From a virus, in the IMG/VR virus record IMGVR_UViG_3300023208_000003, positions 1-64,000 of that record: a stretch of DNA of 64,000 nucleotides. One strand, written 5' to 3'. This document shows positions 483 through 33,300 of this stretch, piece by piece; position 1 is the first letter of the stretch, and each line of letters begins with the position of its first letter. The notes under the pieces are model-generated. The model was not told the origin of the DNA. It saw nothing but the letters and a program-made list of their open reading frames with translations, and did not search any database. A program made the position numbers and the translations under genes.

Positions 483-854
483 TTGCGTCTCATTGACTTG
501 CCTTTAGATGAAGTGAGAAGTCACTTAGGTTCATTTTACGAACTCAAAGATTTTGAAATGCAAATTTCTTCAAACAGACCAAAAATTGAAGATCGCTCTC
601 TTGCCAATATTTTTACAGATCTTTACAAAAGGATTACTGGCGAAGAAGCTCCCGCCAACTTTAATCGTTTCGGATCTGAAAAGCAGATACAAGTTATTGA
701 ACCAGTTATAGATTATATTTTAAGCATAACTGATCCAAGTTCTAAAATCGAGAATAAATATTTTTCATTCCTAAATTCTATGCGTCGTCTGTATCGTAAT
801 ATTAAAATATTACGGAGCTTGAATAATATACAACGCAATTTGGAGAAAATTTAA
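483..854 (+). CDS. Hypothetical protein, TTG start
   Basis: A 123-residue protein of unknown function. It opens with TTG directly after the TAA of the preceding gene and in the same frame, so the pair could be read as one gene with an in-frame stop. I favour a separate gene because the new N-terminus (MRLIDLPLDE) resembles the M-K-L-x-E-type openings of other late genes in this window (for example 58663-59325). Only a weak AGG stands in as ribosome site. The body is helical and rich in lysine and arginine toward the C-terminus ('RRLYRNIKILRSLNNI'). Confidence 0.55.
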   Translation: MRLIDLPLDEVRSHLGSFYELKDFEMQISSNRPKIEDRSLANIFTDLYKRITGEEAPANFNRFGSEKQIQVIEPVIDYILSITDPSSKIENKYFSFLNSMRRLYRNIKILRSLNNIQRNLEKI

Positions 855-1133
855 ATGCTATTAAGTGAAATTCACTCATCACAAACTTCAGTTTCACGAA
901 AGTCAATTACTATTACTTGGCCATTTCAATTAACTGGAGAGTTTCACGATGATAAAAAAGTTAATGAGCTTCTTCAACGCTATCACTTAATGGCAGTGCT
1001 ATTACGGCGCGGTGATCAATATCATGGTCCTGAAGTAAGAGTATCTGGTTCGTATGAAAATTTGCAACAGTTCGCATCAAAAGAATTAAAAATGTCACCA
1101 TCACTTTTCGCAAGAAAAATAAATTTGAAATAA
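855..1133 (+). CDS. Hypothetical protein
   Basis: A 92-residue protein that starts at an ATG immediately after the previous stop. It opens with 'MLLSEIHSS', again the short L-x-E type of N-terminus. The rest looks like a small alpha/beta domain ('SITITWPFQLTGEF', 'GPEVRVSGSYENLQQF'). I do not recognise a family. The tight packing indicates one operon with its neighbours. Confidence 0.6.
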   Translation: MLLSEIHSSQTSVSRKSITITWPFQLTGEFHDDKKVNELLQRYHLMAVLLRRGDQYHGPEVRVSGSYENLQQFASKELKMSPSLFARKINLK

Positions 1134-1145
1134 TGGAGAAAAGAA

Positions 1146-1736
1146 ATGAAACTAATGGAAATTGTTATCCTTGCGGAAGCGCGTGATCCTGAACTTAAAT
1201 ATACTGAGAAAAAAGTAAAGGACAAAATTGACCGCGTAATTGTTGCTTTAGAGGGCAACCAATCAGGAAAATTTACAAAGCTTGCTAAGCGTTATAAAAT
1301 TTTGCAGCGCGCATTTGCTGTTTTAACTGAAAAACAAAGTCAATTAAACGCACAAATTAAAGACCAAGCGCTTGAATTTTTTAATGCTGAAGACGAAGTT
1401 CTTACTCGTGTGGTTGAAACAATTTCTTTGACAATTACTATTTCAAAGAAAACTGTTACTACGACTACTAAGGTTGATTACGACGCAATTCTTGCTCAAC
1501 TTGTTGAAATGGTTCCTGAGCTTAAGGACAAGGTTGACGAGCTCATTGCTGCGCACACTGAAATTAAGAAGACTGAAAAGTCACCTTCACTTCGAACTGA
1601 ACTTAAGGAAGGCGTTGTGGAGTGGGTTCGTCAAGTCAAACAAATCGCAAAGAACATCTTCAAGTCAATGAAACTTTGGGGCAAGAGCTACGATAAGAAA
1701 CTTGCGCTTTTAAGCAAGCAGCTTGGAACAGCATAA
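1146..1736 (+). CDS. Hypothetical coiled-coil protein
   Basis: A 196-residue charged, largely helical protein preceded by a GGAG site ('aatggagaaaag'). It opens with 'MKLMEIVILAEARD', which contains L-M-E and L-A-E, fitting the L/I-x-E cleavage rule of T4-type prohead protease. Long K/E-rich helices (residues ~15-75 and 115-195) suggest a coiled coil or helical bundle. No enzymatic motif is visible. It could be an internal head protein like the T4 IP proteins; this rests only on the N-terminus and the neighbouring ADP-ribosyltransferase. Confidence 0.6.
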   Translation: MKLMEIVILAEARDPELKYTEKKVKDKIDRVIVALEGNQSGKFTKLAKRYKILQRAFAVLTEKQSQLNAQIKDQALEFFNAEDEVLTRVVETISLTITISKKTVTTTTKVDYDAILAQLVEMVPELKDKVDELIAAHTEIKKTEKSPSLRTELKEGVVEWVRQVKQIAKNIFKSMKLWGKSYDKKLALLSKQLGTA

Positions 1737-1978
1737 TGCCAAACGCGGTTGTAAAATCATTTGCTAAAAAGGCAGGTAAGTCAGTCAACGATGTTGAAAA
1801 ACTGTGGGATGAAACAAAAGCTGACACAAAGAAAAAGTTCAAAAAGAAAGATAAGCATTATTGGGCTTATGTAAACGCTGTAACTCAGCGTAAATTAGGT
1901 ATTTCAGAATCACATACATTAAGTTCATTTCTTTTTGAGAATGATGAATCAAACTATGATGCGGATTCTGATAAATAA
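1736..1978 (+). CDS. Small basic protein with a K-S-x-x-D/E-V-E-K-L-W motif
   Basis: An 80-residue protein whose ATG overlaps the preceding stop (TAATG). The segment 'SFAKKAGKSVNDVEKLWDE' followed by 'HYWAYVNAVTQRKLG' resembles a short module I have seen in many T4-like phage proteins (F-A-K-K-S-G-K-S-x-x-E-V-E-K-L-W ... Y-A-Y-V); its role is unknown. The C-terminus holds 'LSSFLFEND'. Function not assigned. Confidence 0.6.
   Translation: MPNAVVKSFAKKAGKSVNDVEKLWDETKADTKKKFKKKDKHYWAYVNAVTQRKLGISESHTLSSFLFENDESNYDADSDK
1971..1977 (+). promoter_or_regulatory. Possible late promoter ATAAATA
   Basis: The late motif overlaps the stop codon of the preceding gene and lies 30 bases before the next start at 2007. 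It fits the T4-type late consensus, but its position inside a coding end makes a chance match possible. Confidence 0.35.
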
Positions 1979-2006
1979 TTTTTGGTAATAAAAAAGGTAT
2001 GAGGTA

Positions 2007-2192
2007 ATGACTCAAAAATACGAAACATCTTACGAAAAGTCTTCTCGCGAAATTAGAAACAAACGCAAGAAAGGTAAAAAGCAATTCAATGAAAATAGTG
2101 ATCATCAATCTCGTCGTCAGCAAAGAATCAGCTTTAAAAATTTCTTAGAAGAGCAAGACAAAAAATTTTATGAATCTGACGATTTTGAGTAA
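2007..2192 (+). CDS. Small highly charged protein
   Basis: A 61-residue, lysine/arginine-rich N-terminal half with an acidic tail; start preceded by GAGG ('tatgaggtaatg'). It contains 'ISFKNFLEEQDKKF', reminiscent of the F-K-x-F-L-x-E peptide found at the N-terminus of other late genes, but here at residues ~41-54. No family recognised. Confidence 0.5.
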   Translation: MTQKYETSYEKSSREIRNKRKKGKKQFNENSDHQSRRQQRISFKNFLEEQDKKFYESDDFE

Positions 2193-2204
2193 ATGAGGTA
2201 ATTA

Positions 2205-2678
2205 ATGTTTGTTGTTCCAATTAAAAATGATATCATAAAAACTAAAGATGGCGGAACTTTTACTGTTTTGGAATACACTAATTTCAAATCTAAGGGGCCT
2301 GCTGTTTACGTTAAAGCTGATACTCCTTTTGTGATTTACTTTTTTGACATTGATGAAATCAATGATGTAAAAGTTGATTTTAATGGAGCAACTAAAGTTT
2401 TTTCAGCGTTAGGTCATTTAAAAAGAAAAATTCACCTACCGCAAAAGCATGATACTGTTACTTTAATTGACGGTGATAATGAAAAAACACTTTTAGTAGA
2501 AACTTTAAAACTTCATAGTAAATCAATTGGTCTCTCTAGAGGACTTGTTTTTATTGATTCAGAAGGAAATAAACACTCTCTTGGATCGATCGGTGATATT
2601 GAACGTTCTACCGGCACGAGCTTTTTTGATCGTAAAAAATTCGCACATTTGTATCGTGATTATTTTGGAGAAAAATAA
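2205..2678 (+). CDS. Hypothetical protein
   Basis: A 157-residue predicted beta-rich protein ('GGTFTVLEYTNFKSKGPAVY', 'HDTVTLIDGDNEKTLLV'), with start preceded by GAGG ('aatgaggtaatta'). The pattern of alternating strands resembles SH3- or OB-like folds common in phage tails, but no signature is specific. It ends with TAATG overlap into the next gene. Confidence 0.6.
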   Translation: MFVVPIKNDIIKTKDGGTFTVLEYTNFKSKGPAVYVKADTPFVIYFFDIDEINDVKVDFNGATKVFSALGHLKRKIHLPQKHDTVTLIDGDNEKTLLVETLKLHSKSIGLSRGLVFIDSEGNKHSLGSIGDIERSTGTSFFDRKKFAHLYRDYFGEK

Positions 2679-2894: not shown

Positions 2895-3542
2895 GTGACT
2901 CAACTATTTACAAATAACGCGATTTCGCTGTTAACAACATCACTTTCATCAAGCGGTCTAACATTTAGTGTTATAAGTGGTGATGAACACGCATTTCCAC
3001 AGCCAGTTCACGTTGATGATTTTTTTCTTGTAACGTTTGAAGATCCTCACACGCATGACATTGAAATTGTAAAAATATCTGATAGAACTGGAAATATTTT
3101 TCACATTGATCCAGCAGGTCGTGGCTTTGAAAATACAACGATTCGTGCGTGGGCACCTGACACATTAGTTGATCATCGTTTAACTGCCTATACATTAAAT
3201 AAAACCAACACTATTTCACCTGGTGATACATCAGCACCTATCATTGTTCCAAGCGCCGATATTCGTCCAGTTAATAACTTAGTAGTTACAACTTTAATTC
3301 GTACTTGTAAATGGCTAGTAACTGTAATTGATATTTCTGGTAATCGCGCTTCAATGTGTGAAGTAATGGCAGTTTATCGTGGAGCTTCAATTCTACCAGC
3401 ATATACAGTTTATGGAAAAGTAGGCGACGCACTTCGCTACTCTATTTCCGTTACTCAAAGTAGCAATGAAATGACTTGCAATGTCATTAACAATGATACA
3501 GTACCTCTTACTACTTCTATAGTAAGAATCAGCGCTATCTAA
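2895..3542 (+). CDS. Tail or baseplate fibre-like structural protein, GTG start
   Basis: A 215-residue beta-rich protein beginning with GTG after 'ttaaaggttaata'. The N-terminal ~90 residues ('DDFFLVTFED', 'EIVKISDRTGNIFHID', 'AGRGFENTTIRAWAPDTLV') have the strand-and-loop pattern of the phage fibre or baseplate attachment module in which a position-dependent payload value is followed by 'GRG..ttatAW..gt.v..r.ta'. The C-terminal ~110 residues form a separate beta domain. It is the last gene of the first operon, just upstream of a repetitive fibre gene. Confidence 0.6.
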   Translation: MTQLFTNNAISLLTTSLSSSGLTFSVISGDEHAFPQPVHVDDFFLVTFEDPHTHDIEIVKISDRTGNIFHIDPAGRGFENTTIRAWAPDTLVDHRLTAYTLNKTNTISPGDTSAPIIVPSADIRPVNNLVVTTLIRTCKWLVTVIDISGNRASMCEVMAVYRGASILPAYTVYGKVGDALRYSISVTQSSNEMTCNVINNDTVPLTTSIVRISAI

Positions 3543-25293: not shown

Positions 25294-27699
25294 ATGTCAT
25301 ATATCGGAGCATCAATAAGCGCCGATGAATCAAAAGTTTTAGTGTGGGAACGTATTAATGGCGAGCGTGTTGTCAAAGAATACGATATTCCATATTATTT
25401 CTATTATCCTGATGAAAATGGTCCGTACACATCAATGTACGGTGACACTCTATCAAAAAAAGAAATCTATTCAGAATTTCAATATACAAGAAAAGAATGG
25501 GATAAAATTCGCGATTCACATTTAGCAGAGTTTGGAAAGCTCTTTGAATCTGATATTGACCCCGTAGTAAAAGTTCTTATGAATAATTACTACGGAAAAC
25601 CAGCTCCTAATCTAAATGTAGGTTTTATCGATATTGAAGTTGACGCTGACCCAAATATTGGGTTCTCAACTATCAATAATCCGTATTCTGAAATTACTGC
25701 GATAACAATCTACAAGCGCTGGCTTGATGAATATATCGTACTTGCCGTTCCCCCTAAAGAATATAAAGGCAATCTTGGTGAAACGTTAAGTCTTGATGAA
25801 TTTGATGATTACAAAGATGAGAAAGCTAAGCTTTTTCTTTTCAAATCTGAAAAAGAACTTTTAGGTAGATTCATAACAGAAATTAGAGATGTTGACGTTT
25901 TAACCGGTTGGAACTCTGAGTTTTACGATATGCCAATGTTACTACGTCGAGTTGCCCATGTTCTTGACGGAGTTTCAATAAAATCTAACTCTCAAGAAAA
26001 TACATACGCTCCAACATTATTTCGTTTTGATGATTACAAAAAAATTAACAATCAAGTTAAACATTTCTGCTTTGAAAAAGCAACTCCACCAAGTTTAAAA
26101 ATAAAGCCTGATCGCTTCGGTGTTGACTCTATCGTAAGTAAAATTTGGGGGAGAAGTCACCTTGATTACCTTCGTCTTTTCAAAAAATTTACGTTTGAGG
26201 GCAGAACGTCTTGGTCATTAAACTCAGTTCTTGAAGATGAGCTAAACATTCAAAAGCTTTCATATGAAGGAACTCTTATTGACCTATATCGAAAGGATTT
26301 TGAGCACTACATTAAGTACAACTTAGTTGACGTAGTTGGTCTTAAGCGACTTGATGATAAGCGAAAATTCATTCAGCTTGCCAATAACATGGCGCATCAA
26401 AACACCGTTCTTTTAGAGAGCGTGTTAGGTACTGTATTAATAACTGAAACAGGCGTCGCTAATCACGCTCATAACGTTCTTAATGTCATTGTGTGCGATA
26501 AGCCAAAACATAAGTCGCATGATAAAGTAGAAGGAGCAATTGTTCTTAATCCAAAAATCGGATTGCATTGGTGGTTAGGATCGGTTGATATCAATTCTCT
26601 ATATCCAAATACTATTAGAAGCATTAATATTTCTCCTGAGTGTATTATTGGTCAGTTTGAAGAATTTGAAAAAGCATGGTTTGGAATTCGTAATAAAGAC
26701 AATCAGCAGTATACTTTAGCATTTGAAGAACCAGGAAAAACTCGTACTTTAACTGGAGCTGAGTGGAATGAAGAGTTGTTAAAGTCTTCATGGGCCGTTT
26801 CAGCTTATGGCACTGTCTTTAACCAAGAAAAAGAAGGAATAATTCCTTCGATGTTAGGATACTGGTACAGTGAACGTAAGAAAATGCAGGCTGAAAAGAA
26901 AAAATGGACAAAGAAAATTATCGAGCTAAAAGAAGCAGGTGCAAGTAAAGAAGAAATAACTGAAGCACGTGTAAAAGAAGAAGAATTTGATTTGTTACAA
27001 CACACAATGAAAATTTCCTTGAACTCAGCTTATGGCGCGCTTCTCAATTTATTCTTTCGATTTAGTGATCCACGAATGGGGGCTTCTGTTACTGCTACTG
27101 GACGTCAAATTACAACGCATATGATGGGTATAATTGGTGAGGTAATTACTGGTTTATTTGCTGAACTTATAAAAACTACAACAGGCAAAAAAGAAGATTC
27201 AAATAAGGAAGATTTTGTAAATTTTATTGAATATGAAAATAAAGATTCTTATCTAGCTCTTCCATCATCAAGAGATATTAATGTTGTGATTGTTCAAAAT
27301 TCATACGTAACTGACAATGATGCTATAATTTATGGCGATACTGACTCCGTTGAGGAAAATTCTCTTATTACGATAAACGGAATTAAAGATACTTGCAAAA
27401 ATCACTGGCAAAATTTAAATGGAACTAGAATAGGTCATAAAAAGAAAGAATTTCTTTTAGGTAATTTCAAAACACTAGCGTTTGAAAATAATGAAATAAA
27501 AGAGAAAAACGTTAAAGCGTTTTATCGACATAAAGTAACAAAAGACAAATGGAAAATAACTCTTGAAAATAATCAATTTGTTATTGTAACAGAAGATCAT
27601 TCTATTATGGTAAAGCGTAACGGAAAACTAATAGAGGTAAAACCTCAAGATATAAATAGAGATACTGATATTTGTATCTCTATAAAGGAAACAAAATGA
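25294..27699 (+). CDS. 43: DNA polymerase (B family, gp43), N-terminal half fused to N-half of a split intein
   Basis: An 801-residue protein. Residues 1-684 are the N-extein: exonuclease motifs 'GFIDIEVDAD', 'VLTGWNSEFYDMP' and 'YNLVDVVGLKRL'; polymerase motif A 'GSVDINSLYPNT', motif B 'MKISLNSAYGALLN' and the start of motif C 'IIYGDTD'. At codon 685 (base 27346) intein sequence begins with Ser ('SVEENSLITINGIKD', block A), with block B 'VTEDHSI' at intein residues 81-87; it stops after 117 residues. The polymerase therefore lacks its thumb and is completed by trans-splicing with the product of 28652-29629. The stop overlaps the next ATG (ATGA). T4 gp43 has 898 residues; the spliced product here would have 964. 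Confidence 0.9.
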   Translation: MSYIGASISADESKVLVWERINGERVVKEYDIPYYFYYPDENGPYTSMYGDTLSKKEIYSEFQYTRKEWDKIRDSHLAEFGKLFESDIDPVVKVLMNNYYGKPAPNLNVGFIDIEVDADPNIGFSTINNPYSEITAITIYKRWLDEYIVLAVPPKEYKGNLGETLSLDEFDDYKDEKAKLFLFKSEKELLGRFITEIRDVDVLTGWNSEFYDMPMLLRRVAHVLDGVSIKSNSQENTYAPTLFRFDDYKKINNQVKHFCFEKATPPSLKIKPDRFGVDSIVSKIWGRSHLDYLRLFKKFTFEGRTSWSLNSVLEDELNIQKLSYEGTLIDLYRKDFEHYIKYNLVDVVGLKRLDDKRKFIQLANNMAHQNTVLLESVLGTVLITETGVANHAHNVLNVIVCDKPKHKSHDKVEGAIVLNPKIGLHWWLGSVDINSLYPNTIRSINISPECIIGQFEEFEKAWFGIRNKDNQQYTLAFEEPGKTRTLTGAEWNEELLKSSWAVSAYGTVFNQEKEGIIPSMLGYWYSERKKMQAEKKKWTKKIIELKEAGASKEEITEARVKEEEFDLLQHTMKISLNSAYGALLNLFFRFSDPRMGASVTATGRQITTHMMGIIGEVITGLFAELIKTTTGKKEDSNKEDFVNFIEYENKDSYLALPSSRDINVVIVQNSYVTDNDAIIYGDTDSVEENSLITINGIKDTCKNHWQNLNGTRIGHKKKEFLLGNFKTLAFENNEIKEKNVKAFYRHKVTKDKWKITLENNQFVIVTEDHSIMVKRNGKLIEVKPQDINRDTDICISIKETK

Positions 27700-28673
27700 T
27701 AGAATGTCTTGAATGCGGAAAAAAACTAAAAGTAATAAAACACACACATTTAAAATTTAAATGCACAGGCAAATTAAAAAATGTCGCAGAATATTTAACA
27801 AAGTATCCGAACGCTTTAACAGTTTCACCTGAAATAAGCGAAAAGATAGGTAAAGGAAACACTTTAGCTGGGTTTATTGAAAAATATGGTAGTGAAGAAG
27901 GTGAAAAACGGTTTAATCAATATCGTAAAAAGCTAAGTGACAAAAATTCATTTGAAAATATGTCTAAAAAACGTAATTGGACATTTAAACAATGGGACGA
28001 ATATAATAAAAGTAGAGGAATAACCGAACAAAATTTAATAAAAAAATATGGTGAGGAAGAAGGTAAAAAACGTTTTTCACAGTACTGTGAAAAACAAAAA
28101 GATGCTGGTAATTCATTAAAATATTTTGTTGAAAAATATGGTGAGGATGAAGGTTCTCAAAAATATCAAGAAGTCTGTAAATTAAAAGGCATTACTTTAG
28201 AAAATATGATACGGGTTCATGGAACAGATAAAGGACTAATTAAATATCATAAATGGCTTGAATCAACAAAGGGAAACTTTATTTCATTAACTGCTTCACA
28301 ATTTATAAAAGATATTACTGATGAATTACCAGATACCTTTATATTTCACGATGGAATTTATTCAAAAGAATTTTGTATCTATAATGAGCGTCCATTTTTA
28401 TTTGATTTTGTAATTACGGATCCAATTAAACTTTGTATAGAATTCAATGGAGATTTTTGGCACGCAAATCCAAAAGTCTATAAAAAAGATGATATAATAC
28501 CCTTGCGTGGTGGATCATTAACAGCTGGCGAAATTTGGACGCGAGACGCGCATAAGCTAAATCTGATAAAAAATAGAGGATTTGAAGTTTTGGTTATTTG
28601 GGAAAATGATTACTTATCAGATCGTAAAAACACTATTAAAAGAGTTCAAGAATGTATACAGTCTCTGAGTTAA
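27696..28673 (+). CDS. Free-standing homing endonuclease in the gap of the split polymerase, Vsr-like EDxHD type
   Basis: A 325-residue protein starting at ATG 27696 with an AAAGGA site; the in-frame TTG at 27672 lies inside the intein code and is less likely. N-terminal 'CLECGKKLK...H...C' could bind zinc. Four repeats with core K-Y-G-x-x-E-G-x-x-R-F-x-Q-Y (residues ~60-190) are likely DNA-binding modules. The C-terminal ~110 residues contain 'LCIEFNGDFWHANP' and later 'IWTRDAHKLNLI' and 'EVLVIWENDY', matching the Vsr-like E...D-x-x-H...D nuclease of fractured genes (I-Bth0305I family). It overlaps both neighbours (4 and 22 bases), so all three are read as one message. Confidence 0.85.
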   Translation: MIECLECGKKLKVIKHTHLKFKCTGKLKNVAEYLTKYPNALTVSPEISEKIGKGNTLAGFIEKYGSEEGEKRFNQYRKKLSDKNSFENMSKKRNWTFKQWDEYNKSRGITEQNLIKKYGEEEGKKRFSQYCEKQKDAGNSLKYFVEKYGEDEGSQKYQEVCKLKGITLENMIRVHGTDKGLIKYHKWLESTKGNFISLTASQFIKDITDELPDTFIFHDGIYSKEFCIYNERPFLFDFVITDPIKLCIEFNGDFWHANPKVYKKDDIIPLRGGSLTAGEIWTRDAHKLNLIKNRGFEVLVIWENDYLSDRKNTIKRVQECIQSLS

Positions 28674-29629
28674 AAATTTCAGCTGTTGAGAAACTTCCAA
28701 ATTTTGATGATGAATATGTATATGATGTAGTAATGGAAGATGATTCTACACCTTATTTTTTTGCAAATGATATTTTAGTTCATAATTCCTGTTATTTCCA
28801 TACTTTCGCAAATAATAAAGAGGATGCGGTCGTTATAGCTGACAGCGTAGCTGAAGAAGTTAACTTAAGCTTTCCAAGTTTTATGAAAGAAGCATTCTTT
28901 TGTAAACCAGGTTTTGTAGACTACATTAAAGCCGGTCGTGAAATCGTTGGAAAAAGTGGTTTATTCCAGGCAAAGAAAAAGTATACAATTAAAATTGTTG
29001 ATTTAGAGGGAAATGCCGTAAGTAAGATAAAATCAATGGGTTCAGAAATTAAAAAATCTGATACACCTCGGGTTGTTCAGAAATTTCTAAAAGAAACAGT
29101 TGATATGATTCTAGAAGGGCACACGTATCAAGAGCTTGAAGCCTTCATAAATTCTAAGCGTGAAATAATGTTTAGAAATATTGATCCAAATGAAAGCATA
29201 AAGATGGGAATTGCTAAAGCTGCAAATAAAGTTGAATACTTCACACAAGCTTATAAAGCTGAGCAGAATAAAACTCCAATGATTAACGATAAAACAGGAA
29301 GAAAAGTTACTGTTCCAGGCCACATTAGAGCTGCTATTAACTACAATATTTTAGCGCAAGAACACGAAGGAATGAGCGCAATTCAAATTAAATCAGGAGA
29401 TAAAGTTCTTGTCTTTTACTTGAAAGGAAATCATCGAGGATGGAATTCTATAGGAATTCCATCCGATTTTGACTCATTTCCAACATGGCTACTGAATGAA
29501 GTTTCGATAGATTTAAAAACCACTGAAATGAAAATGATTGATAGTAAATTAACCGGGGTTTTTACAGCTTGGGGTTATGAAGTACCAACCATGCAATCCG
29601 CGTTCTTAAACGCCCACATTGTTTGGTGA
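28652..29629 (+). CDS. 43: DNA polymerase (gp43), C-terminal half preceded by C-half of the split intein
   Basis: A 325-residue protein. Residues 1-45 are the C-intein, with block F 'YVYDVVMEDDSTPYFFAND' and block G 'ILVHN'; the nucleophile Ser46 (codon at 28787) starts the C-extein 'SCYFHTFANN'. Joined to the N-extein it restores motif C as Y-G-D-T-D-S. The remainder carries palm and thumb features of T4-type polymerase: 'QAKKKYTIKI', 'MGSEIKKSDTP' and the terminal thumb region ending 'AFLNAHIVW', which may be the clamp-binding tail. No strong Shine-Dalgarno is seen; translation probably depends on coupling to the endonuclease gene. Confidence 0.9.
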   Translation: MYTVSELKISAVEKLPNFDDEYVYDVVMEDDSTPYFFANDILVHNSCYFHTFANNKEDAVVIADSVAEEVNLSFPSFMKEAFFCKPGFVDYIKAGREIVGKSGLFQAKKKYTIKIVDLEGNAVSKIKSMGSEIKKSDTPRVVQKFLKETVDMILEGHTYQELEAFINSKREIMFRNIDPNESIKMGIAKAANKVEYFTQAYKAEQNKTPMINDKTGRKVTVPGHIRAAINYNILAQEHEGMSAIQIKSGDKVLVFYLKGNHRGWNSIGIPSDFDSFPTWLLNEVSIDLKTTEMKMIDSKLTGVFTAWGYEVPTMQSAFLNAHIVW

Positions 29630-30757: not shown

Positions 30758-31062
30758 TAAGATTAGCAAAATTTACAAATTGGCTTACTGAAAAAATTCA
30801 AAACAGAAGTAAGAAACCGTGGGGTCAATTCACTGTTTCAGGTGTAAGTGATGGAATGTTGCGTTTTGAAATGGCTTGGAACCCCGCGTTTTTAAAAAAT
30901 CTCCATGATAATGGGTTTAGAGGTGTTTCAGATGAAGAAACAGTTCAGAACTTTCTGCTTGGTTCCTTAATGTGGCCGAAAGAAATGAACGTTGATAACA
31001 CCATTAATTCTGATGCCCATCCTTTCCTTGACAAACCAGAAGATGGACGAATTGTTCAATGA
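30754..31062 (+). CDS. Hypothetical protein
   Basis: A 102-residue protein with the ATG at 30754 (ATGA overlap, AGAGGA upstream); an in-frame ATG at 30730 is less well placed. 'RLAKFTNWLTEKIQNRSKKP' then 'GMLRFEMAWNPAFLKNLHDN'. Not recognised. Its last 7 bases overlap the opposing HNH endonuclease gene, suggesting the mobile gene was inserted at its 3' end. Confidence 0.6.
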   Translation: MIRLAKFTNWLTEKIQNRSKKPWGQFTVSGVSDGMLRFEMAWNPAFLKNLHDNGFRGVSDEETVQNFLLGSLMWPKEMNVDNTINSDAHPFLDKPEDGRIVQ

Positions 31063-31949
31063 TGAAAATAAGATAAAATTTTAGAAATTTCATTCTGCGA
31101 TATTCTATGTGATTTTACGCAATTTTCATATTCAGAAATGAATTGTAAATTGCGAATATCACCAATAATTAATGGATCAATTTTATTCTTAAATCCTATA
31201 ACAATAGGAATTTTATGATCAAGATGAAATTTATTTTTACCTCTACCTCTTTTTTCAAAATTCAATAAAATATGTATTGGTTGACAATTTGTAATTTGAC
31301 GCACTTTTTTACGGTATTTTAAATATTCATCTTTTTCGTTGAAACTAATCCAATCACCTCTCAGTTCTCTGGTTTTACGAATTTTATTTAATCGTTCATC
31401 GTATAAAAACGTGTTTCTAATTTTATTATGATAATTTTTCGTCGCTGCTGATAATTTTAAATTACCAATATTTGATTTACGAATTTTTTCTCTAACTTCA
31501 GCTGTATGTAAATGATTGGTTTTTACTTTTATATTACGCTTAATTTTTGTAATATTTGCCTTTGCGGCTCCTCGTTGAGATGATGTTAATCCATCTTTAC
31601 CAACAATTGAAAGAGCTTTTTTAATTTTAGCATTTATTAAAAGCCTTTTATCTTCAATTTTCGGTTTTGAAATTTTACAAATATGGATGTAATGGCAAGC
31701 TTTAGAGCATGTTTTTGAATAACAATATTTTCCATCAGTTTTTATAAAACGCGCGCTTGTTTGGCAAACAACACATTTTGGAACTTCATTTAAATCATGT
31801 TGAATATGAAACAAACGTTCAATAATTTTACAATTTTCAGAAAGATATTTTGTTCGTTCTTTAATTATTAAAAAAAGATCAAAACGTTTTTCAACCATTT
31901 TAACTGCTTGTTTTTTCAGATGAGAACCTGAAAACAGTATGTTTATCAT
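31056..31949 (-). CDS. HNH homing endonuclease
   Basis: A 297-residue protein. Residues ~58-85 hold a Cys cluster ('CVVCQTSARF', 'CYSKTCSKAC') like a zinc ribbon. A basic central region contains a NUMOD3-like segment ('TAEVREKIRKSNIGN'). The C-terminus carries the HNH motif: 'FHLDHKIPIV', then 'DIRNLQFISEYENCVKSHRI'. It sits between the replication genes and RNase H on the opposite strand, with its own late promoter, as free-standing HNH homing genes of T4-like phages often do. Confidence 0.8.
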   Translation of the reverse strand: MINILFSGSHLKKQAVKMVEKRFDLFLIIKERTKYLSENCKIIERLFHIQHDLNEVPKCVVCQTSARFIKTDGKYCYSKTCSKACHYIHICKISKPKIEDKRLLINAKIKKALSIVGKDGLTSSQRGAAKANITKIKRNIKVKTNHLHTAEVREKIRKSNIGNLKLSAATKNYHNKIRNTFLYDERLNKIRKTRELRGDWISFNEKDEYLKYRKKVRQITNCQPIHILLNFEKRGRGKNKFHLDHKIPIVIGFKNKIDPLIIGDIRNLQFISEYENCVKSHRISQNEISKILSYFHH

Positions 31950-31994: not shown

Positions 31995-32978
31995 ATGAAA
32001 AGATTAATTTTTGACACTGCGAATGTTCTTTTTAGAACTCACGCGGCGCATTCAAAATATCATTCTGATGGTGAAAATTTAGGTTTATGTCTTCATATTG
32101 TGTTAAACACTTTTCTCAAATATTATCGTCAGTTTCAACCAGATCAAATCGCGTTGACTTTTGAAGGTTCAAATAACTGGAGAAAAAATTATACCAAATC
32201 ACACGCATGTGTTTCAAAAAGAATCTATAAAGCCAATAGAGTAAAGGATCCATCAATGGAACCATATTTTGCTTTAATGAGATCATTTGAGCAGCTAGTG
32301 CGTGAACATACAAGTCTTGTTTGTCTATCGGCGCCCGAAGTTGAAGGTGATGATCTTTTTGCTGGATATGTTCAACGATTTACTGAAGAAGGTGATGAAG
32401 TTATTGGAATCTCTGGTGACAAAGATTTTGTTCAGCTCTTAAAATACCCAGGATTTAGATTGATTAATCCTGACGATGGTAAAGATAGAACATGTGAAGA
32501 TCCACTTTACTTTATCTTTGAAAAATGCATTCGTGGAGATTCTGGGGATAATGTAATGTCAGCATTTCCACGAGTAAGAAAAACTCGTTTGAATAAAGCG
32601 TACAATGATGAATATGAGCTCATTCAATTAATGCAGGAACAGTGGGAAAGTTCACATCCAGATACTGGTGAAACTTTAAAATTCACGGTGCAAGATTTAT
32701 TTATCGAAAATATTTTACTAATGGATCTTGAAGCTCAACCTACAAATATTCGTGAAATTATTAGTAAAACTCTTGATCATGAGCTAACAAATCATGGAAA
32801 ATTTTCATTATTTCATTTCCAGAAGTTTCTTGGAAAATATGATTTGCGTCAAATTTCTGATAATGTAATGCAATACGTTGATATGTTTAGCGTAACTGGA
32901 TTACGCTCACCACATCACCAAACTGAACAACCAGTTAAAAATTCAATTACATCACCTGAATCGGCAATTATGTTTTGA
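31995..32978 (+). CDS. rnh: RNase H / 5'-3' exonuclease (T4 Rnh type, FEN-like)
   Basis: A 327-residue flap-endonuclease-family protein (T4 RNase H 305 residues). Metal-binding acidic residues are visible in 'LIFDTANVLFRTH' (Asp7), 'EVEGDDLFAGYV', 'ISGDKDFVQLL' and 'CIRGDSGDNVM', in the right order for the FEN/PIN-like fold. It removes RNA primers and flaps from lagging-strand fragments. The late motif upstream is probably linked to the inserted HNH gene rather than its native control. The 3' end overlaps the opposing gene by 11 bases. Confidence 0.85.
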   Translation: MKRLIFDTANVLFRTHAAHSKYHSDGENLGLCLHIVLNTFLKYYRQFQPDQIALTFEGSNNWRKNYTKSHACVSKRIYKANRVKDPSMEPYFALMRSFEQLVREHTSLVCLSAPEVEGDDLFAGYVQRFTEEGDEVIGISGDKDFVQLLKYPGFRLINPDDGKDRTCEDPLYFIFEKCIRGDSGDNVMSAFPRVRKTRLNKAYNDEYELIQLMQEQWESSHPDTGETLKFTVQDLFIENILLMDLEAQPTNIREIISKTLDHELTNHGKFSLFHFQKFLGKYDLRQISDNVMQYVDMFSVTGLRSPHHQTEQPVKNSITSPESAIMF

Positions 32979-33300
32979 AGTTTGAAATTAATTGCTTTGG
33001 ATCTTCGCGCTTTAGAACTGACCAACCTTTACTCTTTCCTCTTGATACTGGGCTACTGTCTTTTTGCTGCGCCTTATGACGTAAAATTGAGTAGCCCAGA
33101 TTATAGAGTTCACAAAAACCTGTAATATCCTTTGTTATAAAAAATTTGCCTGTTGGGCTTTCTAATGTCCAAAGCAGCGCTCTGTGATGTCTGCCTCCCA
33201 TTAATCGTATTGAAAGTTTTATTCTCGTTGACATTGAACGAGTTTTACCGATTTTTGCTTGACTAATTTTTTGTTTGTGTTCAAATGTTAAATTGCGCAT
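32968..33300 (-). CDS. Orphan NUMOD-type DNA-binding protein (endonuclease remnant)
   Basis: A 110-residue protein with a perfect AGGAG site (33304-33310) and a late promoter. 'LTFEHKQKISQAKIGKTRS' is NUMOD3-like; 'LESPTGKFFITKDITGFCEL' followed by 'SPVSRGKSKGWSVL' matches the C-terminal DNA-recognition part of T4-like HNH homing endonucleases. The HNH nuclease part, normally N-terminal, is absent, and no remnant of it is visible upstream. Strong expression signals suggest it is still made, perhaps as a DNA-binding repressor of homing or simply a recent deletion. Confidence 0.65.
   Translation of the reverse strand: MRNLTFEHKQKISQAKIGKTRSMSTRIKLSIRLMGGRHHRALLWTLESPTGKFFITKDITGFCELYNLGYSILRHKAQQKDSSPVSRGKSKGWSVLKREDPKQLISNFKT

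What the first reader, a model, noticed from the sequence alone, without database searches (positions are those of the whole stretch)
25294..29629. Fractured DNA polymerase: split intein in motif C with an endonuclease gene in the gap
Seen: the polymerase is broken exactly inside motif C (Y-G-D-T-D | S). The first gene ends with a 117-residue N-intein (Ser1, block B T-E-D-H); the last begins with a 45-residue C-intein ending V-H-N before Ser+1. Between them is a complete Vsr-like endonuclease gene, overlapping both sides by 4 and 22 bases. Known: this 'fractured gene' layout, with split inteins and a free-standing Vsr-like endonuclease, was described from metagenomic phage genes by Dassa and co-workers. 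Inference: an active polymerase exists only after trans-splicing, and the endonuclease would home into the motif C codons of uninterrupted relatives. A Ser1/Ser+1 natural split intein at a polymerase active site could be a new, possibly fast splicer.
Basis: partly seen in the sequence, partly recalled or inferred. Interest (0 to 1): 0.92.

Follow-up and report, generated by a model that had tools for sequence, protein, structure and literature searches.

The report
Phage polymerase rejoined by split intein
A bacterial virus keeps its DNA polymerase gene in two halves, with a DNA-cutting mobile gene between them, and almost certainly rejoins the two protein halves with a self-splicing split intein; this is a good new example of an arrangement already known from other phages.

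Summary
A T4-like B-family DNA polymerase is broken after YGDTD in motif C. The halves end and begin with a 117-aa N-intein (Ser1, NX His62, TxxH85) and a 45-aa C-intein (VHN|Ser+1). A complete EDxHD/Vsr-like endonuclease gene lies between them, overlapping by 4 and 22 nt. The three genes use three different frames, so one base error cannot explain the split. The joined exteins align end to end with an uninterrupted homologue (E 4e-252).

This is a new member of a known kind. The same site, intein family and endonuclease family occur in Aeromonas phage Aes123 (crystal 9HTH, trans-splicing published), Campylobacter CP21, Tenacibaculum PTm1 and Vibrio VPALA, in huge Lak phages and in other metagenomic phages.

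Three things are added here. First, empty sites exist in close relatives and the pattern is patchy. Second, a T4-type late promoter (TATAAATA, 27651) and a strong RNA hairpin precede the endonuclease, like the I-TevI/MobE timing device; hairpins recur in three relatives. Third, the same genome has another fractured gene: terminase with an atypically split intein and an HNH gene. Splicing, homing and timing are inferred, not shown.

The parts
25294..27345 (+). N-extein of the T4 gp43-like B-family DNA polymerase (684 aa): exonuclease motifs, palm motifs A and B, and motif C up to YGDTD
   Evidence: Pfam PF03104 and PF00136, PHROG phrog_262; T4/RB69 gp43 structures
27331..27345 (+). motif C codons YGDTD; the extein/intein junction is after 27345
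   Evidence: uninterrupted relatives read YGDTDS
27346..27696 (+). N-intein, 117 aa: Ser1, NX motif Arg61-His62, block B T82-E-D-H85; stop codon 27697-27699
   Evidence: PF14890 1.5e-8, 9HTH 4e-10, alignment of 16 inteins, model closest to 9HTH
27651..27658 (+). TATAAATA, T4-type late promoter -10 consensus, inside the last codons of the N-intein
   Evidence: late sigma factor gene elsewhere in the genome
27656..27683 (+). 10-bp RNA hairpin (loop 8) ending directly at the endonuclease ribosome-binding site
27684..27689 (+). Shine-Dalgarno-like AAAGGA, 6 nt before the endonuclease ATG
27696..28673 (+). EDxHD/Vsr-like homing endonuclease gene, 325 aa
   Evidence: phrog_22677 1e-62; relatives in Aes123, CP21, PTm1, VPALA, Lak phages
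27855..28265 (+). endonuclease residues 54-190: helical repeats of the type LExxIxxYGxEEGxxKW, probable extended DNA-binding region
   Evidence: alignment A1 and model
28404..28604 (+). endonuclease catalytic domain, residues 237-303: D237, E249-F-N-G-D253-F-W-H256, D284, W302-E303
   Evidence: invariant or nearly invariant columns in 15 relatives; fold matches I-Bth0305I 3r3p and Vsr
28652..28786 (+). C-intein, 45 aa, ending DILVHN
28787..29629 (+). C-extein of the polymerase (280 aa, begins Ser+1-Cys-Tyr-Phe) plus stop
   Evidence: PHROG phrog_1918 and phrog_262; end-to-end match to intact homologue L083

Best explanation
The phage makes its replicative DNA polymerase as two proteins. Each carries half of a class-1 (Ser1/Ser+1) split intein of the Aes123 PolB1 type. 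The oppositely charged halves (net +6 and -8) bind, fold into one Hint domain and splice in trans, joining YGDTD to SCYF, so motif C and an active 964-aa polymerase exist only after splicing. The gene in the gap encodes an EDxHD/Vsr-like homing endonuclease. It spreads the whole block (N-intein, endonuclease, C-intein) by cutting polymerase genes that lack it at or near the YGDTD^S codons and being copied in by repair. Shown: the anatomy, the conserved catalytic residues, the fold assignments, and patchy presence with empty sites in close relatives. Inferred: splicing, cleavage and homing. A secondary inference is that the endonuclease is also transcribed late, from a gp55-type promoter at 27651 inside the N-intein codons. 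Such a transcript would start inside an RNA hairpin next to the ribosome-binding site, the logic known for T4 I-TevI and Aeh1 MobE.
For: Frames, overlaps and junction residues. Intein: PF14890 1.5e-8, 9HTH 4e-10 by sequence and best PDB fold match. All catalytic residues conserved among 16 relatives, including contiguous cis inteins of the same family. The NX histidine required in Ser1 inteins (PMC10189870) is present. Published trans-splicing of the Aes123 relative at a gp43 site (PMC11923092; Aes123 layout; sequence). Same trio in CP21, PTm1 and VPALA. Endonuclease: phrog_22677 1e-62, conserved D/E-NGD-WH/D residues, I-Bth0305I (prob 0.93) and Vsr as fold matches. Mobility: in the extein tree L003 pairs with uninterrupted L083 (100/100), while in the intein tree L003 pairs with the window (98/97); exact empty sites. 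Protein-level constraint: window versus L003 pN about 0.24-0.39 against pS about 0.63-0.92 in all five segments. Late promoter: TATAAATA lies 10-60 nt before a gene's first ATG in 12 of 20 cases, versus 32 of 337 for control octamers; late sigma gene 9e-26. Hairpin: z about -5, third strongest of 209 gene starts; z <= -4 also in L005, L006 and L009.
Against: No experiment. The PDB fold hit of the endonuclease has a weak E-value (0.24, although probability is 0.93 and three Vsr-fold entries agree), and the profile search reached Vsr only at E 1.2. The two fragments could associate without splicing, as reported for split gp43A/43B of phage 25. The hairpin lies in translated codons here, so ribosomes finishing the N-intein would melt it; it does not cover the Shine-Dalgarno itself. 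Isolate relatives (Aes123, CP21, PTm1, VPALA) lack it. Excess silent-site conservation at the hairpin against L003 is not significant. The trees have long branches and cannot tell intein gain from repeated loss.
Confidence: 0.9

Rival explanations
1. The two polymerase halves assemble without splicing, and the intein pieces are degenerate leftovers.
For: Split gp43A/43B of Aeromonas phage 25 co-purify and are active without an intein (PMC2988022).
Against: Every intein catalytic residue is kept while the two closest inteins have diverged to 46% identity. pN is about as low in the intein as in the polymerase. The break lies directly after the second catalytic Asp of motif C, inside the palm, where an unspliced 117-aa tail would be hard to tolerate.
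Confidence: 0.05
2. The split is a sequencing or assembly artefact of a contiguous intein with a nested endonuclease.
For: Contiguous versions of this intein exist (SCTP-2, CC_R7, L042), although without any endonuclease inside. No second assembly of this phage was found.
Against: Three reading frames would need at least two indels, both at clean gene ends with ribosome-binding sites. The same layout occurs in relatives, three of them identical from different assemblies, and in isolate genomes.
Confidence: 0.02
3. The endonuclease no longer homes at this site: it is dead or serves another role, and the intein is inherited vertically.
For: The intein tree broadly follows the polymerase tree in deep splits. 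Cleavage was not tested, and the window and L003 intein copies are old (46% identity).
Against: The catalytic set is intact and pN is low. The endonuclease is kept at the same place in very distant phages. Close relatives have empty sites.
Confidence: 0.15
4. The hairpin stimulates or does not affect endonuclease translation, and TATAAATA is incidental, so the endonuclease is simply co-translated with the N half through the ATGA overlap.
For: The hairpin is inside translated codons in the window. The Shine-Dalgarno is mostly unpaired, and the cost of opening the full ribosome footprint (14-16 kcal/mol on long transcripts) is hardly higher than at the PolN start (13.6).
Against: TATAAATA is strongly associated with gene starts in this genome, and the hairpin plus a [T/G]ATAAATA recur together in L005 and L009, where the hairpin is outside translated sequence.
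Confidence: 0.45

Closest known systems
Aeromonas phage Aes123/Aes508 gp43 with the Aes123 PolB1 split intein and 'putative VSR endonuclease' (JN377899; PDB 9HTH)
   Same: Same site (DTD^S of motif C), Ser1/Ser+1, typical split position (120+39 aa versus 117+45), same endonuclease family in the gap, overlapping genes
   Different: 33% intein and 38% endonuclease identity; Aes123 gp43 is additionally cut into 43A/43B; no hairpin/late promoter before its endonuclease
Campylobacter phage CP21, Tenacibaculum phage PTm1, Vibrio phage VPALA, Prevotella Lak phages
   Same: Same trio at the same polymerase site
   Different: Only 31-39% intein identity; hosts and backbone differ
Pseudomonas jumbo phages MIJ3/PA5oct/Paride
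   Same: Split PolB intein at the same site (PMC6892783)
   Different: The gap gene is a longer endonuclease with DUF723 repeats (phrog_559/3339), not phrog_22677
'Fractured genes' of Dassa et al. 2009 (gp41, IMPDH, NrdA and others with Vsr-like endonucleases)
   Same: Split intein halves with a free-standing Vsr-like endonuclease between them; relatives of this endonuclease also sit in fractured helicase-type genes
   Different: Paper not held here, so the comparison rests on citations and recall
T4 I-TevI / Aeh1 MobE / phage 25 seg43 translational hairpins with late promoters
   Same: Late promoter and hairpin directly before a homing endonuclease gene (PMC2988022)
   Different: Here the element lies inside N-intein codons; the hairpin abuts rather than covers the Shine-Dalgarno (as in seg43)

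Membership tests
Fractured gene (Dassa-type) | Host gene split into two ORFs, each carrying one intein fragment | tested here: met
Fractured gene (Dassa-type) | Separate Vsr-like endonuclease ORF between the halves | tested here: met
Fractured gene (Dassa-type) | Protein trans-splicing restores the host protein | not testable with these tools
   only sequence conservation and the published activity of the Aes123 relative
PolB1 (Aes123-type) Ser1 split intein | Inserted at DTD^S of PolB motif C, Ser at 1 and +1 | tested here: met
PolB1 (Aes123-type) Ser1 split intein | NX-motif His preceded by Arg/Lys, and block B TxxH | tested here: met
   YRHKV and VTEDH, aligned; motif defined
PolB1 (Aes123-type) Ser1 split intein | Homologous Hint fold | tested here: met
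   (9HTH first; low TM-score, only the N fragment was modelled)
PolB1 (Aes123-type) Ser1 split intein | No cysteine anywhere in the intein | tested here: not met
   Cys17 and Cys110 in the N fragment; non-catalytic, and the published CP21, LCGC14 and GOM-OPS members also have a cysteine, so this is not treated as a defining feature
EDxHD/Vsr-like homing endonuclease | Catalytic domain of the I-Bth0305I/Vsr fold with conserved acidic and His residues | tested here: met
   fold E-values are weak, and the sequence-profile match to Vsr itself is only E 1.2
EDxHD/Vsr-like homing endonuclease | Site-specific cleavage of the empty allele and homing | not testable with these tools
Hairpin/late-promoter-controlled T4 homing endonuclease | Late promoter so placed that late transcripts lack the hairpin | tested here: met
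   TATAAATA 27651-27658, hairpin 27656-27683; promoter significance; the transcription start itself is inferred
Hairpin/late-promoter-controlled T4 homing endonuclease | Hairpin sequesters the ribosome-binding site | tested here: not met
   Shine-Dalgarno stays mostly unpaired; the hairpin abuts it, as in seg43 of phage 25

The most novel reading that the evidence does not exclude
Fractured polymerase genes in T4-like phages carry a built-in clock. The N-intein's last codons, or the short gap after them, double as a gp55 late promoter and an RNA hairpin. The polymerase halves are made and spliced early, while the homing endonuclease is produced late, combining a split-intein element with I-TevI-type temporal control.
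Probability: 0.4. Interest if true: 0.58.

Novelty: new member of a known kind. Interest (0 to 1): 0.42.

Why it matters
It adds a divergent Ser1/Ser+1 split intein (46% to its nearest relative, 33% to Aes123) to a small family used as redox-independent protein-ligation tools. It shows occupied and empty alleles of the same polymerase site in close relatives. It also suggests, testably, that fractured-gene endonucleases are under the late promoter and hairpin control known from T4 endonucleases. Finally, it shows one phage whose replicative polymerase and packaging motor both appear to depend on protein trans-splicing, with unrelated endonucleases in the two gaps.

Tried and rejected
Read-through or frameshift giving one polypeptide: rejected, three frames; in L003 only a stop codon separates the N-intein frame from the endonuclease frame, so read-through there cannot be excluded, but the C half is in another frame. 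Self-splicing RNA intron: no Rfam match in 24-34 kb. Operator mimicry (endonuclease upstream region resembling its own homing site, as for I-TevI): 14/20 in the window, reached by 16 of 100 shuffles; 15/20 in L003, 1 of 100; inconclusive. RNA-level conservation at the hairpin against L003: 8 of 13 identical codons versus 39% background, p about 0.09. Co-conversion tracts around the L003 insertion: silent identity to L083 is lower just upstream of the site (0.35 versus roughly 0.4-0.77 elsewhere), but the protein also varies there; not interpreted. C-half protein and junction DNA as probes of IMG/VR: nothing. The original Dassa 2009 paper is not in the library. Counting TATAAATA in the window alone showed no excess (6 versus 6.65); only its placement before genes is non-random. 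The PDB top hit 6z1p by fold was set aside as a probable helical-repeat match.
Full report
Observation. The first ORF is 684 residues of a T4 gp43-like B-family polymerase ending IIYGDTD, followed by 117 residues beginning Ser-Val-Glu-Glu with block B VTEDH. The third begins with 45 residues ending DILVHN, then SCYF. Profile searches give polymerase on both halves and an intein splicing domain on the first tail, and the solved Aes123 PolB1 intein is the best PDB match of the tail by sequence (4e-10) and by predicted structure. Joining the exteins gives a 964-residue protein that aligns over residues 2-960 with an uninterrupted 948-residue ORF in locus L083 (E 4e-252), so the joint is at the right residue. 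An artefact is very unlikely: three frames, plausible ribosome-binding sites at the inner gene starts, and the same layout in the nearest relative, which is identical in three IMG/VR records from different metagenome assemblies.

The window's phage. The window is bases 1-64000 of a 197,099-base virus record. Its polymerase is closest among named phages to that of Xanthomonas phage XacN1 and other jumbo T4-related phages. It encodes a T4 gp55-type late sigma factor.

The intein. Sixteen inteins at motif C, the window's included, were aligned. Ser1, the NX-motif His (Arg61-His62 here), TxxH of block B, VYD and the final Asn are shared. The penultimate His is replaced by Lys only in two relatives (SCTP-2, L042) inserted two residues upstream (YGD^TDS). 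The NX His is a signature of Ser1 inteins and essential in those tested (PMC10189870). The net charges of the two fragments are opposite (+6 and -8), as in Aes123 (+8 and -9); the polarity is reversed in L006 and Paride, KP13-7 has a negative N fragment with a neutral C fragment, and L108 is an exception with both negative. That is what electrostatic capture would predict, but it is only consistent with it. The fragment is not cysteine-free (Cys17, Cys110). The family comes in contiguous form (SCTP-2, CC_R7, L042), in the typical split form (window, Aes123, CP21, PTm1, VPALA, Lak, Paride) and, at the same polymerase site, in splits with short N fragments (L008 with 13 aa, L009 with 38 aa).

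The endonuclease. It matches phrog_22677 over most of its length. The N-terminus has a Cys-x-x-Cys motif and is followed by helical repeats (LExxIxxYGxEEGxxKW), then a C-terminal domain with D237, E249, D253, H256, D284, W302 and E303 invariant or nearly so in 15 relatives. The model (mean pLDDT 81) matches I-Bth0305I (probability 0.93) and the Vsr structures, although E-values are weak. Relatives sit in other fractured genes with C-intein pieces behind them, several of them helicase-like. In Paride and L108 the gap of the same split intein holds a different, longer endonuclease with DUF723 repeats. PMC12350094 links such proteins to a distant branch of the EDxHD/Vsr group, so a common origin is not excluded.

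Mobility. In the polymerase tree L003, which carries the element, is sister to L083, which does not (74% identity, support 100/100). The window and two further uninterrupted relatives (L087, L097) lie in the same five-row clade. In the intein tree L003 pairs with the window (98/97). The empty alleles read YGDTDS without scar. Gain and repeated loss cannot be told apart, but the presence is patchy. In all five segments pN between window and L003 is about 0.24-0.39 against pS 0.63-0.92, so the intein and endonuclease appear as protein-constrained as the polymerase.

A regulatory element not in the original finding. TATAAATA lies at 27651-27658, 37 nt before the endonuclease ATG. In this genome 12 of 20 TATAAATA have a gene's first ATG 10-60 nt downstream, versus 32 of 337 occurrences of twelve control octamers. 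The genes behind them include a tail-fibre-like gene, a scaffold-like gene, an endolysin and another homing endonuclease. A 10-bp hairpin (27656-27683) follows and ends at the Shine-Dalgarno; its z-score of about -5 is the third strongest among 209 gene starts. Among 52 endonuclease loci of this family only four have z <= -4: window, L005, L006 and L009, all at polymerase motif C. In L005 and L009 a [T/G]ATAAATA lies in the hairpin loop. PMC2988022 describes this device for I-TevI, I-TevII, I-TevIII, segB and Aeh1 mobE, and a hairpin that only abuts the ribosome-binding site for seg43 of phage 25, which is the closest match in geometry. Caution: in the window the hairpin is in translated codons and the Shine-Dalgarno is not paired, so the late promoter is the stronger part of this claim and repression by the hairpin the weaker.

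Known or new. The arrangement, site, intein subfamily and endonuclease family are all known, and the Aes123 member has been shown to splice in trans (PMC11923092). CP21 PolB1 and others are published (PMC12707363), and MIJ3 was described in 2019 (PMC6892783). This is therefore a new, divergent member of a known kind, with some added comparative evidence and an unproven timing element.

Second fractured gene. The same record carries a terminase large-subunit gene split at about 149.4-150.3 kb, with a short N-intein (about 26 aa after ...QELDC), an HNH gene (HNH_3 2e-9) and a C-half with a long C-intein ending VSHN|C. It resembles the atypically split TerL inteins known from metagenomes (recalled) and was not pursued.

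Noticed in passing
G000:C1 about 148,490-151,030 (locus L076: 27..677, 674..1288, 1252..2349), outside the window: Second fractured gene in the same phage: terminase large subunit with an atypical, short N-intein (about 26 aa, Cys1), an HNH endonuclease gene in the gap and a C-intein ending VSHN before Cys+1.
   Followed up: partly
window 31056..31949 (-): Probable free-standing endonuclease (weak phrog_5104 match, His-rich C-terminal motif) on the opposite strand, with TATAAATA 27 nt before its start.
   Followed up: no
window 32968..33300 (-): Short ORF with a NUMOD3-like stretch and a weak match to a homing endonuclease family (phrog_314); possibly a remnant.
   Followed up: no
L067 4284..5966 and L108 2798..4522: In Paride-type phages and L108 the same split polymerase intein has a different, longer DUF723-repeat endonuclease in the gap, suggesting endonuclease replacement or independent invasion at one split site.
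   Followed up: partly
L070, L068, L042: Related inteins two residues upstream (YGD^TDS) in motif C: contiguous in SCTP-2 and L042, split with a Vsr-like gene in Klebsiella phage KP13-7.
   Followed up: partly
L008 and L009 (polymerase N-half ORFs ending at 3212 and 3463): At the same motif C site the N half ends only 13 or 38 residues after the junction: short, atypical splits with the same endonuclease family following.
   Followed up: partly
L017 904..3912: A helicase-like gene that seems to be broken twice, with intein pieces and a Vsr-like endonuclease.
   Followed up: no
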